Below are positions 23,974 to 31,271 of a DNA stretch of 31,271 nt, one piece after another. Both the position numbers and the translations under genes were made by a program. Below the pieces are notes generated by a model. It was not told where the DNA came from. It searched no databases and saw only the letters and a list, made by a program, of their open reading frames with translations. Source of the DNA: Klebsiella pneumoniae (GTDB lineage Bacteria > Bacteroidota > Bacteroidia > Flavobacteriales > Flavobacteriaceae); contig CALPPA020000001.1 in the NCBI GenBank assembly GCA_943325355.2, positions 1-31,271 on the forward strand. The letters are read 5' to 3'. Numbering within the stretch: position 1 is the first letter of the stretch; each line of letters opens with the position of its first letter.

Positions 23974-26799
23974 TTACCTTTTTAACGAAAAATGACCGCT
24001 TTTTTTAGGTTTAGTATCGTCAATTCTTAATTCATACCAATAATCATCCGAAGGCAAAGGATTTTTATTAAACATTCCATCCCAAGTAGGTTTTGTAGCA
24101 TTTAAAACGGAAATTAATTTTCCATATCGGTCAAAAATAGATACTTCGGCTTGAGGATAATTATTTAATCCCTTTACTTCCCAGAAATCATTATAGGTGT
24201 CGCCGTTTGGAGTAAAAAACTTGGGAGCAATTAAAACGATAAAAGGTTGGCTCACATTGCTACATAAATTTATTTCTCTGACATAAGCAGCTTGCAAACC
24301 ACTTTGTACATTAAAAAACACATTCGAACTTTGATAATTGATACCATCAATGGAGTATTCAAAATAAGGTTCTTCTTTTTTTAAATAAATAACAACAGTA
24401 GTTTCGTTGACATCAATTCGATCTATTTCAGGAATATTATATTCTAAAACGGTAATTTTCTTTGTGCTGGAACAATTTTCGGGCGCTGGACTAGTAACGA
24501 CAACAGAATAAATCCCAGCATTTTTTACTGTAATTTTTTGGGTTTTCTCGCCTGTTGACCATTCATAAAACATTCCTGGAAGTGATGCGTCAAGTTCTAC
24601 ACCTGACGACTTACATTTAGTTACTTCTTCATCTGAAACTACTGGAGGAGTGTATACAAATACATCAACGGGAACCCGATTTCCGTTACTGCAGCCATTA
24701 TTAAAGGCTTCAGCATAATAAGTAGTACTTGCCGCTATATTTGGGATTGTAAAACTGGTTCCTGTTCCTTCAATAATTGTTCCCGTTGCAGTGGCATACC
24801 AATTTATAATGCCGATAGTCGAATTCACTTGAAGCGTTACAGTTCCAGAACTGCATCTGGAAACTGGAGTATTTGTACTCGTAATACTTGGAATAGTATT
24901 TACAGTTGCTATAATTGGAATTCTGTTTGCACATCCATAATCAACATAATACGTTGTGGTACTATTTATTGAAGGATTGACATAACTATTCCCTGTTCCC
25001 AATAAATTTCCTCCGCTTGCTGCATCATACCAATTTATTGTTCCTGTTGAATTTGCTTGCAGCGTAACTATTCCTGAATCGCAAATCGGAGCGGGAGTTG
25101 TAACACTAATTTGGGCTATTGTCATTGACGTACTTGCCGAAATTTGTATAGCATCAACATCGCCTGCAACCATCCCTCCATATTCAACGATGAAGCCTTT
25201 GGGTTGATAATCTCCGGATGGGTCACCAGTAATTGTTAAATCATTCCAAGAGCCATTTTTTCCGATTCCAGGAGCGGTAACGTGAGCATAATCTTCATTT
25301 GCTCCATTAAATTGATTGGGTTCATTGGTATTCCAATTTGCGTAATTTGGAGATGATCCATTTGCTAGACCATTCCAAAAAATAGTACCTGTTTCTGGTC
25401 CAGTAACCCATTTCCAAACACCTTCTGTTTCTTGATCACTTCCTCCAATCCAACCTGCTCCAGGTGCTTGTGCTCCGGCTAATTGGGCTTCATCTGCTGC
25501 TGTTAAAGTAGCTAAATAACCTTGTAAGCCATAATAAGTCCTTGCTTCTGCAGCTATTTTTGCATCAGCCCAAGTAATTCCTACATTGGCAACATATTCA
25601 TAAAAATGTTTGTTTCTAGGCAAATAACTTAATTGGCCTGATCCCAAACTAATCGAAAAAGTTCTGGTTCCAGTAGGCGAAGGGGAGGAATTACTGAATT
25701 TAACATCTGCAATGGCCGCTTCAAAATCAGTATATGGAATATCGACACCAGTTGAAGAGAATAATTTTAGTTTTCCTTCAGATGGAACCCAATCGAATGA
25801 AACAGTTGGATGAGATCCGGTGAGAGTTAATAGATCTTGACCAAAAACATATCCTGATGAGATTTGAATAGATACTGCATCGGTATTGGGGTCAGTAGGA
25901 TCGAATGCAATGTTGACTGTTTCAACAATATTTAAAGAGGTCTGTGGGCAATAGGTTTGATTTCCTGTTGCAGTGATTTTTAGGGGAGTAGGAGTAGCCG
26001 TTTTACTACAGTCCTCAGAATAAAAGGCTGTAGCATCTTTGCGTATCCATATATTATCAGAATAGGCTTTGTTATCAACTTCTATGCATTTTAGATTTGG
26101 ATTAGATAATAGATTTATAAAAATAAGTCCTTGGGGGTTACCACATTTCAAATTTAATTCTAATAGATTGTTATTGTTGCAAACAAAATTACTCAATAGA
26201 GGATTTTTAGAGATATCTAATTTTTTTAATTGATTGTTGTCGCAAAGTAAGACTACGAGCGCTGTATTTACAGAAACATCTAATTCTTTCAATTGATTAG
26301 TGCCACAAACTAAAGTTCCTAGTGCTGTATTTTTAGAAATATTCAATTCTAACAGTTTGTTATTGGAACAATATAAAATTCTTAAAGAATTATTTTTAGA
26401 AACATCTAATGTTGTCAATAAATTTTGTTGGCAACGTAAATTCCATAGCTCAGTGTTTTTAGAAACATCTAAAGTCGCAAGCATATTAAAACTGCAGTCC
26501 AATTGTTGTAATATAATATTTCTCGTAACATCTAAAACGGTTATTTGGTTATAGCTGCAATTTAACTGGACTAATGCCACAAAATCCTGAATACCGGTTA
26601 AATCAGTAATGTATTCGTTTGAAATGGTCAAAGTTGTTAATTTATTCACGCTAGACGTAAGCACCTTGCCATCAATTGCACCAACATCGATACCTCTATC
26701 TAATAAAGCCTGTTCAAAATTCACATCTGGAATTAATGTATATTGTGAATAGCCCAAAAAATTAGAAAGTACTAAAAAGATAAAGAGTAATTTTTTCAT
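23974..26799 (-). CDS. Large secreted LRR and C-type-lectin-like protein, T9SS type B sorting domain
   Basis: 941 residues from the ATG at 26799; a longer frame would overlap the methyltransferase gene and lack a signal peptide at its start. Signal peptide MKKLLFIFLVLSNFLGYSQ. About 55-245: leucine-rich repeats of 21 residues with the LDVSKNTxLxxLxCxxN pattern. About 265-400: a beta-rich cadherin-like segment. About 400-540: a C-type-lectin-like domain (KHFYEYVANVGITWADAK, GWIGGSDQETEGVWKWVTG, NWNTNEPNQFNG, SWNDL). About 565-720: two Ig-like repeats (CDSGIVTLQANSTGTINWYD and a related copy), then a PKD-like stretch (about 735-790). Last 85 residues: type B sorting domain FFTPNGDTYNDFWEVKG, FDRYGKLI, WDGMFN. 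A surface adhesin or glycan-binding role is inferred. It starts 44 bases after the RNA methyltransferase stop. Confidence 0.9.
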   Translation of the reverse strand: MKKLLFIFLVLSNFLGYSQYTLIPDVNFEQALLDRGIDVGAIDGKVLTSSVNKLTTLTISNEYITDLTGIQDFVALVQLNCSYNQITVLDVTRNIILQQLDCSFNMLATLDVSKNTELWNLRCQQNLLTTLDVSKNNSLRILYCSNNKLLELNISKNTALGTLVCGTNQLKELDVSVNTALVVLLCDNNQLKKLDISKNPLLSNFVCNNNNLLELNLKCGNPQGLIFINLLSNPNLKCIEVDNKAYSDNIWIRKDATAFYSEDCSKTATPTPLKITATGNQTYCPQTSLNIVETVNIAFDPTDPNTDAVSIQISSGYVFGQDLLTLTGSHPTVSFDWVPSEGKLKLFSSTGVDIPYTDFEAAIADVKFSNSSPSPTGTRTFSISLGSGQLSYLPRNKHFYEYVANVGITWADAKIAAEARTYYGLQGYLATLTAADEAQLAGAQAPGAGWIGGSDQETEGVWKWVTGPETGTIFWNGLANGSSPNYANWNTNEPNQFNGANEDYAHVTAPGIGKNGSWNDLTITGDPSGDYQPKGFIVEYGGMVAGDVDAIQISASTSMTIAQISVTTPAPICDSGIVTLQANSTGTINWYDAASGGNLLGTGNSYVNPSINSTTTYYVDYGCANRIPIIATVNTIPSITSTNTPVSRCSSGTVTLQVNSTIGIINWYATATGTIIEGTGTSFTIPNIAASTTYYAEAFNNGCSNGNRVPVDVFVYTPPVVSDEEVTKCKSSGVELDASLPGMFYEWSTGEKTQKITVKNAGIYSVVVTSPAPENCSSTKKITVLEYNIPEIDRIDVNETTVVIYLKKEEPYFEYSIDGINYQSSNVFFNVQSGLQAAYVREINLCSNVSQPFIVLIAPKFFTPNGDTYNDFWEVKGLNNYPQAEVSIFDRYGKLISVLNATKPTWDGMFNKNPLPSDDYWYELRIDDTKPKKSGHFSLKR

Positions 26800-28073: not shown

Positions 28074-30680
28074 TTGTCATCTAAGGAAAAAATCATCAAG
28101 GAAACCCCGTTAATGAAACAATACAACGAGATAAAAAGGAAGTATCCTGATGCTTGTTTGTTGTTTAGAGTGGGTGACTTTTATGAAACATTTGGTGAAG
28201 ATGCGGTTCGAGCTTCTAAAATTTTGGGTATAACGTTGACCAAAAGAGGTGCAGGATCCGAAACCGAAACAGCTTTGGCAGGTTTTCCGCATCATTCTAT
28301 TAATACCTATTTACCCAAATTAGTCAAAGCGGGGCTTCGTGTTGCCATTTGTGATCAACTTGAAGATCCAAAAATGACTAAAACTATAGTGAAACGCGGT
28401 GTTACAGAACTTGTGACTCCCGGTGTTTCAATGAATGATGAGGTTTTGCAGTCGAAGACCAATAATTTTTTGGCAGCCATTTATTTTGCCAATAAATCAA
28501 TCGGGATTTCATTTCTTGATGTTTCCACAGGCGAATTTTTGACTTCGCAAGGCAATGCAGAATATATCGATAAGTTGTTGCAGAATTTCAATCCCAGTGA
28601 GATTTTGATTCCCAAAAACAATAAAAATGATTTCCGAGAAACTTTCGGTGATGATTACCACAGTTTTTATTTGGAAGACTGGATTTATAAAGAAGATTAC
28701 GCTTTCGAAATCTTGACAAAGCATTTTCAAACCATTTCTTTGAAAGGTTTTGGAATCGAAGAATTGAAAGAGGGAATTATTGCTTCGGGAGCTATTTTGT
28801 ATTATTTGTCCGAAACGCAACACAATAAAGTACAGCATATAACCGCGATTCAACGTATTGCCGAAGACGCTTATGTCTGGATGGATCGATTTACGATTCG
28901 GAATCTCGAATTGTACCACAGTTATAACCCCAATGCGGTCACACTTTTAGACGTTATAGACAAAACGCTTTCGCCAATGGGTGGTCGTTTGCTTAAACGT
29001 TGGTTGGCTTTGCCTTTGAAAGATGCTAATAAAATACGAAGCCGTCATCAAGTGGTTTCCTATTTGAAAGAGAATCAAAATGTATTAAAAAATATCCAAA
29101 AGCAAATCAAACAAATTTCGGATTTAGAAAGACTGATTTCTAAAATTGCCACCGGAAAAGTATCACCTCGTGAAGTGGTGTACCTGAAAGAATCTTTGGA
29201 TGCTATCATTCCAATAAAAACCTTGGCTTTACAAAGTCCACAAGAAGCGGTGAAAGTCATTGGTGATAGTTTGCACAGTTGTGATTTATTGCGCGAAAAG
29301 ATAAAAACAGTCTTGAATCAAGATGCTCCTGTGGCTGTTGCCAAAGGGAATGCTATTGCCAACGGAATCAATGCCGAATTAGATGAGTTGCGAGCAATAT
29401 CGACTTCCGGAAAAGAATTTCTGGAAGGAATCGAAAAAAGAGAATCCGAAAGAACGGGAATTTCGTCTTTGAAAATTTCCTTCAACAATGTTTTTGGGTA
29501 TTACATTGAAGTTCGAAACACGCATAAAGATAAGGTTCCTGAAGAATGGATTCGGAAACAAACCTTGGTGAGTGCCGAACGTTATATTACCGAGGAACTA
29601 AAAGAATATGAAACCAAAATTCTAGGTGCCGAAGAAAAAATCCACAAAATCGAAGCCGAATTATTCGAGCAATTAGTTTCTTGGATTGCAACTTATATCA
29701 AACCGGTTCAAATGAATGCCAATTTGGTAGCGCAATTGGATTGTTTGTGTTCGTTTACGCAATTGGCTATCGAAAATAAATATGTTTGTCCAGAGCTAGA
29801 CGAAACATTCGAGTTGGATATCAAAAATGGTAGACATCCTGTTATCGAAAAACAATTGCCTGTCGGTATGCCTTATATTGCCAATGATGTTTTCTTGGAT
29901 AGAGAAACACAACAGTTGATAATGATTACCGGACCCAATATGTCTGGAAAATCCGCTATTTTGCGTCAAACTGCTTTAATTGTACTCTTGGCTCAAATGG
30001 GAAGTTTTGTTCCAGCAGAAAGTGTAAGAATGGGCGTAACAGATAAAATATTTACTAGAGTAGGAGCTTCGGATAATATTTCGATGGGAGAATCTACTTT
30101 TATGGTCGAAATGAATGAAACCGCTTCTATTTTGAATAATATCTCCGACAGAAGTTTAGTGTTGTTGGATGAAATCGGAAGAGGAACCAGTACGTATGAT
30201 GGAATCTCTATCGCTTGGGCCATTGCCGAATTTTTACACGAACATCCATCTAAGCCAAAAACCTTATTTGCGACCCATTATCACGAGTTGAATGAAATGA
30301 GTGAATCCTTACCAAGAATTCAGAATTATAATGTTTCAGTCAAAGAGTTAAAAGACACCGTGCTTTTTATCCGAAAACTGATAAAAGGAGGAAGTGCTCA
30401 CAGTTTTGGAATTCACGTGGCAAAAATGGCTGGAATGCCTCAAATCGTAATTTTGAAAGCACAAAAACTGTTGAAGAAATTGGAGAAAGACCATTCTAGC
30501 GAAGTCTTGAGTGGCATTAAATCAGGGAAGGACGATATGCAAATGAGTTTCTTTAATCTAGACGATCCTTTGTTAGAAGAAATAAAAGAGGAAATTTTAA
30601 GCTTGGACATCAACACAATTACACCAATGGAAGCCTTGATGAAACTCAATGAAATCAAGAGAATGTTGACTAAAAATTAG
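28074..30680 (+). CDS. mutS: DNA mismatch repair protein MutS (TTG start)
   Basis: Recognises mismatches and small loops and recruits MutL. 868 residues. The N-terminal mismatch-binding domain has the wedge motif [14 protein letters not shown], with the Phe-x-Glu pair that inserts at the mismatch. The connector, lever and clamp domains follow (about 130-560). The ABC-type ATPase has Walker [11 protein letters not shown], the signature region [13 protein letters not shown], Walker [17 protein letters not shown] and the FATHYHEL loop. Start: the TTG at 28074 keeps [16 protein letters not shown], which resembles the N-terminus I recall for flavobacterial MutS; the first in-frame ATG is at 28113 and would remove 13 residues. 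Alone in its transcript, followed by the tRNA pair. Confidence 0.97.
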
Positions 30681-30748
30681 TTTAATTGTCATAAGGGTTA
30701 GGTTATCAGAAGCTTAACTTTTGCCTATTTATTTTTTATAAAAAACGC

Positions 30749-30778
30749 TTGTGTAATTGAATTAATGTATTAAATTTG
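30749..30778 (+). promoter_or_regulatory. Promoter of the tRNA-Gly (and possibly tRNA-Leu) transcript
   Basis: TTG at 30749-30751, a 19-base gap, then TAAATTTG at 30771-30778, matching the Bacteroidota consensus. The tRNA-Gly begins 46 bases downstream of the -10. No terminator is apparent between the two tRNA genes. Confidence 0.65.
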
Positions 30779-30824
30779 CATCCGCAATACGGTTAAGTAT
30801 TTAGTTCCTTTTTATAATGAAAAT

Positions 30825-30897
30825 GCGAAAATAGCTCAGTTGGTAGAGCGCGACCTTGCCAAGGTCGAGGTCGCGGGTTCGAGCCCCGTTTTTCGCT
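30825..30897 (+). tRNA. tRNA-Gly (anticodon GCC)
   Basis: 73-base cloverleaf. Acceptor GCGAAAA pairs with TTTTCGC at 30890-30896. The anticodon arm is CGACC-TTGCCAA-GGTCG with GCC at 30858-30860, and the T loop is TTCGAGC. No encoded CCA. Confidence 0.97.
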
Positions 30898-30907
30898 CAA
30901 ACCATAC

Positions 30908-31164
30908 GCTTAGTAGGTATTGAATTTAATTGATTTTTTAATTAAATTTAAAATCAAAAAGCAAAACGCTCTGATGTGATTGTGTTTAATTTATTTTTTC
31001 TAAAAATTAGATATAATCTCAAAAAAGCAAAACGCTCGGATGGTGCTGTATTTAATTAATTTTTTCTAAAAATTAGATATAACATTAAAAAGGCAAAATG
31101 CTCGGATGGTGCTGTATTTAATTAATTTTTTCTAAAAATTAGATATAAACTCAAAAAGCAAAAC
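30908..31164 (+). repeat. Tandem ~66-bp repeats, each beginning with the 5' end of tRNA-Leu
   Basis: Units: about 30908-30967 (degraded), 30968-31033, 31034-31099 and 31100-31164, leading straight into the tRNA-Leu at 31165. The last two units each begin with GCTCGGATGGTG, identical to tRNA-Leu bases 1-12, and then diverge to CTGTATTTAATTAA. The next unit upstream begins GCTCTGATGTG and the outermost GCTTAGTAGGT. Every unit ends in GCAAAAC or GCAAAAT. The two clean units also contain TAATTTTT-TCT-AAAAATTA, an 8-bp hairpin. This array fills the space between the two tRNAs; no gene is seen in it. Confidence 0.9.
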
Positions 31165-31250
31165 GCTCGGATGGTGAAATTGGTAGACACGCTGGACTTA
31201 AAATCCAGTGAACAGCAATGTTCGTGCGGGTTCAAGTCCCGCTCTGAGTA
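31165..31250 (+). tRNA. tRNA-Leu (anticodon TAA)
   Basis: 86-base class II tRNA with a long variable arm (GAACAGCAATGTTC region). Acceptor GCTCGGA pairs with TCTGAGT at 31243-31249, including two G:U pairs. The anticodon arm is CTGGA-CTTAAAA-TCCAG with TAA at 31199-31201. Discriminator A, no encoded CCA. Its first 12 bases are repeated twice exactly and at least once imperfectly upstream. Confidence 0.97.
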
Positions 31251-31271
31251 CTATTGAAAACCGTAAAGACT

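What the first reader, a model, noticed from the sequence alone, without database searches (positions are those of the whole stretch)
30968..31176. Tandem array that repeats the first 12 bases of tRNA-Leu with its upstream sequence
Start points of the tRNA-like words are at 30968, 31034, 31100 and 31165, a period of 66, 66 and 65 bases. Two copies are exact to tRNA base 12 (GCTCGGATGGTG) and then switch to non-tRNA sequence. Integrating elements normally duplicate the 3' end of a tRNA, so a repeated 5' end does not fit an att site. The array may have arisen by tandem duplication across the tRNA start, or be a remnant of several tRNA-Leu genes that lost their bodies. If transcribed with tRNA-Gly, it would give RNA with several decoy tRNA 5' ends in front of the true one, which could affect 5' processing by RNase P or yield small RNAs.
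Basis: seen in the sequence. Interest (0 to 1): 0.75.

Follow-up and report, generated by a model that had tools for sequence, protein, structure and literature searches.

The report
Repeated tRNA ends around a palindrome
Next to a leucine tRNA gene of a Flavobacterium-like bacterium, the first 12 bases of the gene are copied several times around a short palindrome, and the same palindrome sits beside copied ends of other tRNA genes in related bacteria, which hints at a small, apparently undescribed DNA process that duplicates gene ends.

Summary
The array is real: units at 30968, 31034 and 31100 precede tRNA-Leu(TAA) at 31165, and a fourth, degraded unit starts at 30908. It recurs: 30660-31271 is 87-88% identical in two sister genomes, and 20 of 398 genus genomes have strict decoy pairs. 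Units carry a 25-bp palindromic motif, S (TAATTTTTNNRAAAAATTANNTAAA), exact in 154 of 383 genus genomes. Of 197 distinct (not independent) S contexts fetched, 184 have tRNA-Cys or Ser(GGA) (3' side) or Leu(TAA)/Leu(CAA) (5' side) within 1.5 kb, 5 look like such arrays cut short, 2 belong to an array of a trxB-like gene end, and 6 lie elsewhere. A copied gene end starts 4-7 nt after S at 161 of 183 tRNA-linked sites. The common cause is probably at DNA level: S-linked duplication of gene ends, then gain and loss between repeats. The enzyme is unknown. The RNase-P-decoy idea is untested and unlikely to be general, as Cys arrays follow a terminator-like hairpin. 'No 5' att site' is too strong: 159 of 3919 Islander islands have 5' fragments.

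The parts
28074..30680 (+). mutS-like gene, syntenic anchor upstream of tRNA-Gly (name recalled from the translated sequence; not run through a family search)
   Evidence: used as query
30749..30778 (+). Bacteroidota-type promoter match (TTG-N19-TAAATTTG) for the Gly-Leu transcript; the consensus is recalled
   Evidence: TAnnTTTG within 80 bp upstream of tRNA-Gly in 69 of the 71 distinct Gly-Leu loci of that call
30825..30898 (+). tRNA-Gly(gcc)
   Evidence: z 5.7, 0 of 500 shuffles
30968..31033 (+). unit 2: decoy GCTCTGATGTGA (4 mismatches), S with 1 mismatch at 30985-31009 (- strand)
31034..31099 (+). unit 3: exact decoy of tRNA-Leu bases 1-12 at 31034-31045, leader AAAAAGGCAAAAT
31100..31164 (+). 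unit 4: exact decoy at 31100-31111, leader AAAAAGCAAAAC
31051..31075 (-). S motif TAATTTTTAGAAAAAATTAATTAAA
31117..31141 (-). S motif TAATTTTTAGAAAAAATTAATTAAA
31165..31251 (+). intact tRNA-Leu(taa)

Best explanation
The array is one member of a family of gene-end tandem repeats in this genus (Flavobacterium, inferred from the named mutS relatives) and, at tRNA-Cys, in four other genera of the family. A unit is a copy of the end of the adjoining gene plus its flank plus a 25-bp palindromic motif S, and the copied gene end mostly starts 4-7 nt beyond S. Most likely S marks, and helps to make, a DNA-level duplication or insertion at the gene end that leaves the gene intact (here the tRNA 5' end is regenerated). 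Copies then multiply, are partly homogenised and are lost by recombination between the direct repeats. Here the array is probably co-transcribed passively between tRNA-Gly and tRNA-Leu. SHOWN: anatomy, stepwise copy number, shared S, narrow S-to-fragment distance, presence/absence in relatives. INFERRED: that an enzyme acts on S, the order of events, that losses go through the repeats, and that transcription is passive.
For: S without mismatch occurs in 154 of 383 genus genomes; I noticed the reversed-pattern control hit in one. Of 197 distinct S contexts in the loci fetched, 184 have tRNA-Cys (144), Leu-taa (28), Leu-caa (8) or Ser-gga (4, one genome) within 1.5 kb on the expected side; 5 more look like such arrays cut by a contig end or an insert; 2 are the trxB-like array; 6 are elsewhere. 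The copied end starts 4-7 nt after S at 26 of 28 Leu-taa, 8 of 8 Leu-caa, 4 of 4 Ser and 123 of 143 Cys sites, and at gene base 11-13, 10-12, 67-68 and, for 111 of 143 Cys sites, 49-52; 4 nt at the trxB-like gene. Gly-Leu spacers are bimodal: 41 of 71 at 8-30 bp, 30 of 71 at 73-279 bp, none between. Filled and empty sites share the AAAACCATACT junction (G169 against G146, G002, G044, G062). The decoy follows the host tRNA: GCTTGGGTGGTG in G026, GCTCGAGTGGTG in G177, GCCCGGATGGC at Leu-caa. The presence label needs 10 changes on a mutS tree. Units within a genome are 89% identical on average (7 genomes) against 81% between genomes. Arrays occur in one-contig genomes (G010, G358, G269).
Against: No enzyme was identified, and no autonomous element carrying S was met: of three viral-contig scans, two had no hit and the third hit one coding stretch. 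Copy-number change alone needs no special enzyme. 13 of 143 Cys and 2 of 28 Leu-taa sites gave no fragment start, and 7 Cys starts lie 3, 8, 11 or 12 nt after S. Three Cys loci carry an imperfect S without a copied end (L273, L277, L280; by eye). The start point within tRNA-Cys differs between genera (bases 31-35 in the four other genera). Homogenisation is modest: in G272 units are only 78% alike, below the between-genome mean. Contexts from one array or clade are not independent.
Confidence: 0.6

Rival explanations
1. Ordinary slippage or unequal crossing-over: an AT-rich palindrome is a replication hot spot, the gene end was duplicated by chance, and the array grows and shrinks by recombination. 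S has no dedicated enzyme.
For: Units within a genome tend to resemble each other; decoys tend to be more degraded away from the tRNA (mean mismatches 0.56, 0.89, 1.5, 2.0 for ranks 1-4, n = 27, 9, 4, 2, decoys over 4 mismatches not counted); precise loss between 12-bp repeats would explain identical empty sites. G045, without a Cys array, has AAAGTTATGGTT after the half site, which shares GGTT with the T-loop (by eye), so microhomology could have made the Cys junction.
Against: The same 25-bp S at four tRNA genes and one protein gene, with narrow spacing to the copied gene end, is not expected of independent slippage events.
Confidence: 0.25
2. Attachment-site scars: an integrase that targets tRNA loops inserted islands and each unit is a collapsed island; S is part of the old attP.
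For: Intact tRNA plus displaced end fragment on the correct side and in the correct orientation is the Islander signature (passages). Fragment starts lie at the D-arm, anticodon region or T-arm. 5' fragments are rare but known (159 of 3919).
Against: Units measured here are about 60-140 bp, too short for an integrase gene; no full-size island with S was met among the loci fetched; one array duplicates a protein-gene end.
Confidence: 0.1
3. RNA-level function: decoy 5' ends or hairpins in the Gly-Leu precursor steer RNase P or other processing, or give small RNAs.
For: A Bacteroidota-type promoter match before tRNA-Gly and none in the array; units can fold (z -3.7 for 30909-30967, -4.4, -2.4 and -1.8 for the next three); 88.6% of hairpin cells stay paired in 20 genomes, and sliding the partners by 1-3 columns lowers this to 32-55% and the covariation score from 0.142 to 0.066 or less (the structure came from one unit of the window, which favours it).
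Against: Covariation score reached by 25 and paired cells by 51 of 500 shuffles, only one pair with double changes; RNAalifold finds no consensus structure; no Rfam match other than tRNA reaches its gathering score; 378 of 398 genus genomes lack a strict decoy pair; Cys arrays follow a terminator-like hairpin (by eye).
Confidence: 0.04
4. Assembly artefact of the MAG.
For: The window is a contig end of a fragmented MAG.
Against: The stretch 30660-31271 is 88% identical in G272 and 87% in one-contig G269, arrays included.
Confidence: 0.01

Closest known systems
Escherichia coli tyrT locus repeats (rtT RNA); recalled, not read here
   Same: Tandem units downstream of a tRNA gene that each repeat the end of that tRNA, as in the tRNA-Cys and tRNA-Ser arrays here
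   Different: The window's array repeats the 5' end upstream, carries the S palindrome, and the family spans four tRNA genes and a protein gene
tRNA-targeting integrative islands (Islander definition, PMC4383910, passages seen)
   Same: Intact tRNA plus displaced end fragment, correct side and orientation, tandem arrays possible; 5' fragments in 159 of 3919
   Different: Unit of about 66 bp, no integrase, same motif also beside a protein gene
REP/MITE palindromic repeats (recalled)
   Same: Short palindrome without genes, present in many genomes
   Different: S is not dispersed: 184 of 197 distinct contexts beside four tRNA genes, 5 more judged so
Concerted tandem duplication of tRNA gene clusters (recalled)
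   Same: Direct repeats with partly homogenised units
   Different: Only bases 1-12 are repeated; tRNA bodies are absent

Membership tests
tRNA-targeted genomic island (Islander) | Displaced tDNA end fragment on the correct side and in the same orientation | tested here: met
   Decoys upstream, same strand as tRNA-Leu
tRNA-targeted genomic island (Islander) | Integrase gene between tDNA and fragment; length 2-200 kb | tested here: not met
   65-66 bp units without room for a gene
E. coli tyrT-type repeats | Tandem units downstream of a tRNA repeating its 3' end (definition recalled) | tested here: not met
   The window has 5' ends upstream; sister arrays at tRNA-Cys/Ser do meet it
Dispersed REP/MITE family | Many copies at unrelated sites in a genome | tested here: not met
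   Own genome (64% complete): beyond the array only hits with E >= 0.0025 over at most 51 query bases; S contexts nearly all at tRNAs
Remnant tRNA-Leu gene cluster | Traces of tRNA bodies after base 12 | tested here: not met
   Palindrome and leader instead; only two tRNAs found by ARAGORN and by Rfam above the gathering score
Structured regulatory RNA | Covarying helix | tested here: inconclusive
   88.6% of cells paired, better than slid versions, but covariation not clearly above shuffles; RNAalifold none
HUH/RAYT or other palindrome-cutting element | Enzyme that cuts at a fixed distance from the palindrome | not tested
   Only the narrow 4-7 nt spacing was measured

The most novel reading that the evidence does not exclude
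S is the recognition site of an undescribed site-specific system in Flavobacteriaceae that repeatedly duplicates the ends of neighbouring genes (tRNA 5' or 3' ends, once a protein gene end), leaving the gene intact: a minimal, gene-less element of about 60-140 bp moved in trans.
Probability: 0.3. Interest if true: 0.8.

Novelty: new variant of a known kind. Interest (0 to 1): 0.6.

Why it matters
Repeats of tRNA ends are easily read as island scars or local accidents. A single 25-bp motif tied to copied ends of several genes, at a narrow distance and exact in 154 of 383 genus genomes, makes a definite, testable mechanism likely. It would also explain variable spacers at tRNA loci and could give false tDNA-fragment calls in island searches.

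Tried and rejected
Rejected: assembly artefact (arrays conserved in relatives and in one-contig genomes). Phage origin of S: three viral-contig scans gave no relevant hit (the one hit lies in a coding stretch). Known RNA family: none at its gathering score except tRNA in 30600-31271. RNA hairpin under selection: covariation weak. The 20 rows of that alignment were chosen from 32 collected units. Left out were the five Leu-caa units, six Leu-taa units with degraded or imperfect decoys (G292, G142, G147, G295, G025, G150) and G169, which nearly repeats G227; G113, G297 and G378 were not collected. So the conservation of the 12-mer in it is partly by choice. The generic sigma-70/terminator scan of 30600-31271 gave one promoter-like site (minus strand, 31022-30993, in the array; shuffles 2.2) and one terminator-like site inside tRNA-Gly (30873-30889; shuffles 0.5). 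Papers: ten searches were answered; I saw only listings and starts of abstracts except passages of PMC4383910 and PMC8371274. No listed paper appeared to describe these arrays; the library lacks most subscription journals. In G269, 30 of 40 tRNA matches were scanned (TRF, period 20 or more, within 400 bp of a tRNA): arrays only at Leu-taa, plus a 24-bp repeat downstream of the same tRNA; its Cys array was met apart.

The 75 Gly-Leu loci were chosen by similarity to the window and by pattern hits, so they are enriched for arrays; the figure not chosen that way is 20 of 398, with strict 12-mers. Four of the 75 did not resolve (G361, G247 and G043 at contig ends, and G234). In the tree G382 was dropped for too short a sequence. 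The 43 of 52 genomes were hand-picked, and some of its one-mismatch hits (such as TAAATTTTACGAAAAATTACCTAAA in several genomes) were not followed and may be unrelated. The match list was cut; of the places listed I followed the loci given and 40 stretches, so the contexts of the unlisted genomes were not seen. S contexts were counted with T or A at the first base.

Full report
WHAT IS THERE. The window ends at a contig end of a MAG that is 64% complete; its closest named mutS relatives are Flavobacterium. A mutS-like gene (28074-30680; name recalled) is followed by tRNA-Gly(gcc), the array and tRNA-Leu(taa). A fourth, degraded unit lies at 30908-30967 (z 5.7, 0 of 500 shuffles). Each unit reads: tRNA-Leu bases 1-12, then an AT-rich palindrome, then a short leader. 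A Bacteroidota-type promoter match (consensus recalled) lies before tRNA-Gly and none in the array; TAnnTTTG lies within 80 bp upstream of tRNA-Gly in 69 of 71 distinct loci, and one long spacer (G025) has it inside. The generic sigma-70 scan found one match in the array on the minus strand, fewer than in shuffles. Co-transcription of Gly, array and Leu is therefore likely, not shown.

RELATIVES AT THE SAME LOCUS. The stretch 30660-31271 is 88% identical in G272 and 87% in G269, whose spacers hold arrays of the same make-up. A strict decoy pair occurs in 20 of 398 genus genomes (14 of 333 good ones). In 71 resolved Gly-Leu loci (75 examined, a sample enriched for arrays) the spacer is 8-30 bp in 41 and 73-279 bp in 30, with none between: 14 at 73-82, 10 at 111-167, 2 at 192-231, 4 at 265-279. 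The nearest decoy was found within 4 mismatches in 27 of 30 long spacers and is exact in 20 of these 27; decoys further from the tRNA tend to be more degraded (0.56, 0.89, 1.5, 2.0 mean mismatches for ranks 1-4, n = 27, 9, 4, 2). In G169 the unit sits between the same AAAACCATACT spacer and the tRNA that abut directly in G146, G002, G044 and G062. On a tree of 46 rows built from the DNA upstream of tRNA-Gly (mostly mutS), the long-spacer label (22 rows) needs 10 changes, 9-11 in bootstraps, at least 4 forced by well-supported branches; this fits repeated loss between direct repeats, repeated gain, or both. Where the tRNA has another 5' end the decoy follows it: GCTTGGGTGGTG in G026, GCTCGAGTGGTG in G177. 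Units within a genome are on average 89% identical (7 genomes with two or more units; 78-95%) against 81% between last units of different genomes (351 pairs, up to 98%), a modest sign of homogenisation. A different genus (G485, probably the same contig as L098) has one GCTGAAGTGGTG decoy with a G+C-rich palindrome instead, in 1 of 397 family genomes by that pattern.

THE SHARED MOTIF. Searching 40 chosen genomes for the palindrome core (up to 3 mismatches) gave matches in 28, several of them in other tandem arrays. These lie downstream of tRNA-Cys (TRF periods 88-102, 2.3-6.9 copies) and of tRNA-Ser(gga) (period 71, 4.9 copies, G197), and there each unit repeats the tRNA 3' end from the T-arm on and, at tRNA-Cys, a terminator-like hairpin. 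G200 has 12 S copies at tRNA-Cys. Read as S = TAATTTTTNNRAAAAATTANNTAAA, the motif is present without mismatch in 154 of 383 genomes drawn from the genus and in 7 of 299 drawn from the family, the own genome included. Of the 6 other-genus genomes, 4 have it behind tRNA-Cys, with a copied fragment that starts at bases 31-35, in the anticodon region, rather than at bases 49-52; the other two (L295, L296) show no copied tRNA end that I could see. Further arrays or single units stand upstream of tRNA-Leu(caa) in 5 genomes. One array (G152) duplicates the 3' end of a gene whose translation reads like thioredoxin reductase (my reading), so the process is not limited to tRNA genes.

COUNTS. Over the loci fetched (named mutS loci left out), 197 distinct 120-bp S contexts were seen. 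184 have one of the four tRNA genes within 1.5 kb on the side expected from S's orientation (144 Cys, 28 Leu-taa, 8 Leu-caa, 4 Ser). Of the other 13, 5 look like such arrays cut by a contig end (L014, L016 twice, L357) or separated by an insert (L223), 2 are the trxB-like array, and 6 are elsewhere (L272 on a viral contig, L295, L296, and one locus in three genomes, L307, L349, L350). Contexts of one array are not independent, and loci fetched because of Gly-Leu similarity inflate the Leu-taa share; the S-based searches were blind to tRNAs. The copied gene end starts 4-7 nt after the last A of S at 26 of 28 Leu-taa, 8 of 8 Leu-caa, 4 of 4 Ser and 123 of 143 Cys sites; of the rest, 2 and 13 gave no start and 7 Cys sites lie at 3, 8, 11 or 12 nt. 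At the trxB-like gene it is 4 nt.

READING. Formally the arrays run: gene end, flank, S, about 5 nt, copied gene end, flank, S, and so on, in one orientation of S. For 3'-side genes this runs downstream, for the Leu genes upstream on the other strand. The same rule at unrelated genes argues for a DNA-level process tied to S. What acts on S is unknown. An integrase scar, a palindrome-cutting (HUH-type) enzyme and replication slippage at a palindrome are all open; the narrow distance favours a directed cut, while the copy-number changes need only recombination. In one genome without the Cys array, G045, the sequence after the half site shares GGTT with the T-loop, so microhomology could have made the first Cys junction (by eye).

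RNA. Units can fold, and 88.6% of hairpin cells stay paired, more than in slid versions (32-55%), but the covariation score is reached by 25 of 500 shuffles and RNAalifold finds no consensus. The Cys arrays follow a terminator-like hairpin with a T run (by eye). I therefore rate the decoy function low, though it has not been tested.

KNOWN THINGS. The Islander paper (passages only) gives 3760 islands with 3' and 159 with 5' tDNA fragments of 3919, and its filters require an integrase and 2-200 kb, so these arrays are not islands by that definition. The archaeal integrase review (passages) extrapolates cleavage sites at borders of tRNA loops, the D and T loops for one integrase, which is suggestive for the fragment starts here. 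The E. coli tyrT repeats are the nearest recalled parallel. The paper searches listed nothing that appeared to describe these arrays.

Noticed in passing
L264 (G234:C33), after tRNA-Gly: tRNA-Leu(taa) seems to lack about its first 22-24 bases (by eye), and GCTCGGATGGTG is absent from the 6.2 kb fetched; a real deletion or an assembly fault.
   Followed up: partly
L230, L238, L241, L279, L285, L315, L319, L320, L339, L354: A G+C-rich palindrome (CCCGA..TCGGG) sits inside what looks like the displaced tRNA-Cys fragment: 10 of 90 distinct Cys loci within 800 bp downstream, 0 of 90 upstream.
   Followed up: partly
L329 and L358 (G152:C4 end, C16 start): A run of 68-bp units that repeat the end of a trxB-like gene (five exact S on C4, one on C16), at contig ends; the gene itself stays open.
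   Followed up: partly
L223 (G269): An IS-like insertion, judged by reading the sequence only, lies within the tRNA-Cys array and separates one S from the rest.
   Followed up: no
L307, L349, L350 (G075, G114, G245): One homologous non-tRNA locus with a single S-like sequence and no copied gene end that I could see.
   Followed up: no
window 26215-26350: 63-bp tandem repeat (2.2 copies) inside a large minus-strand ORF with leucine-rich-like repeats.
   Followed up: no
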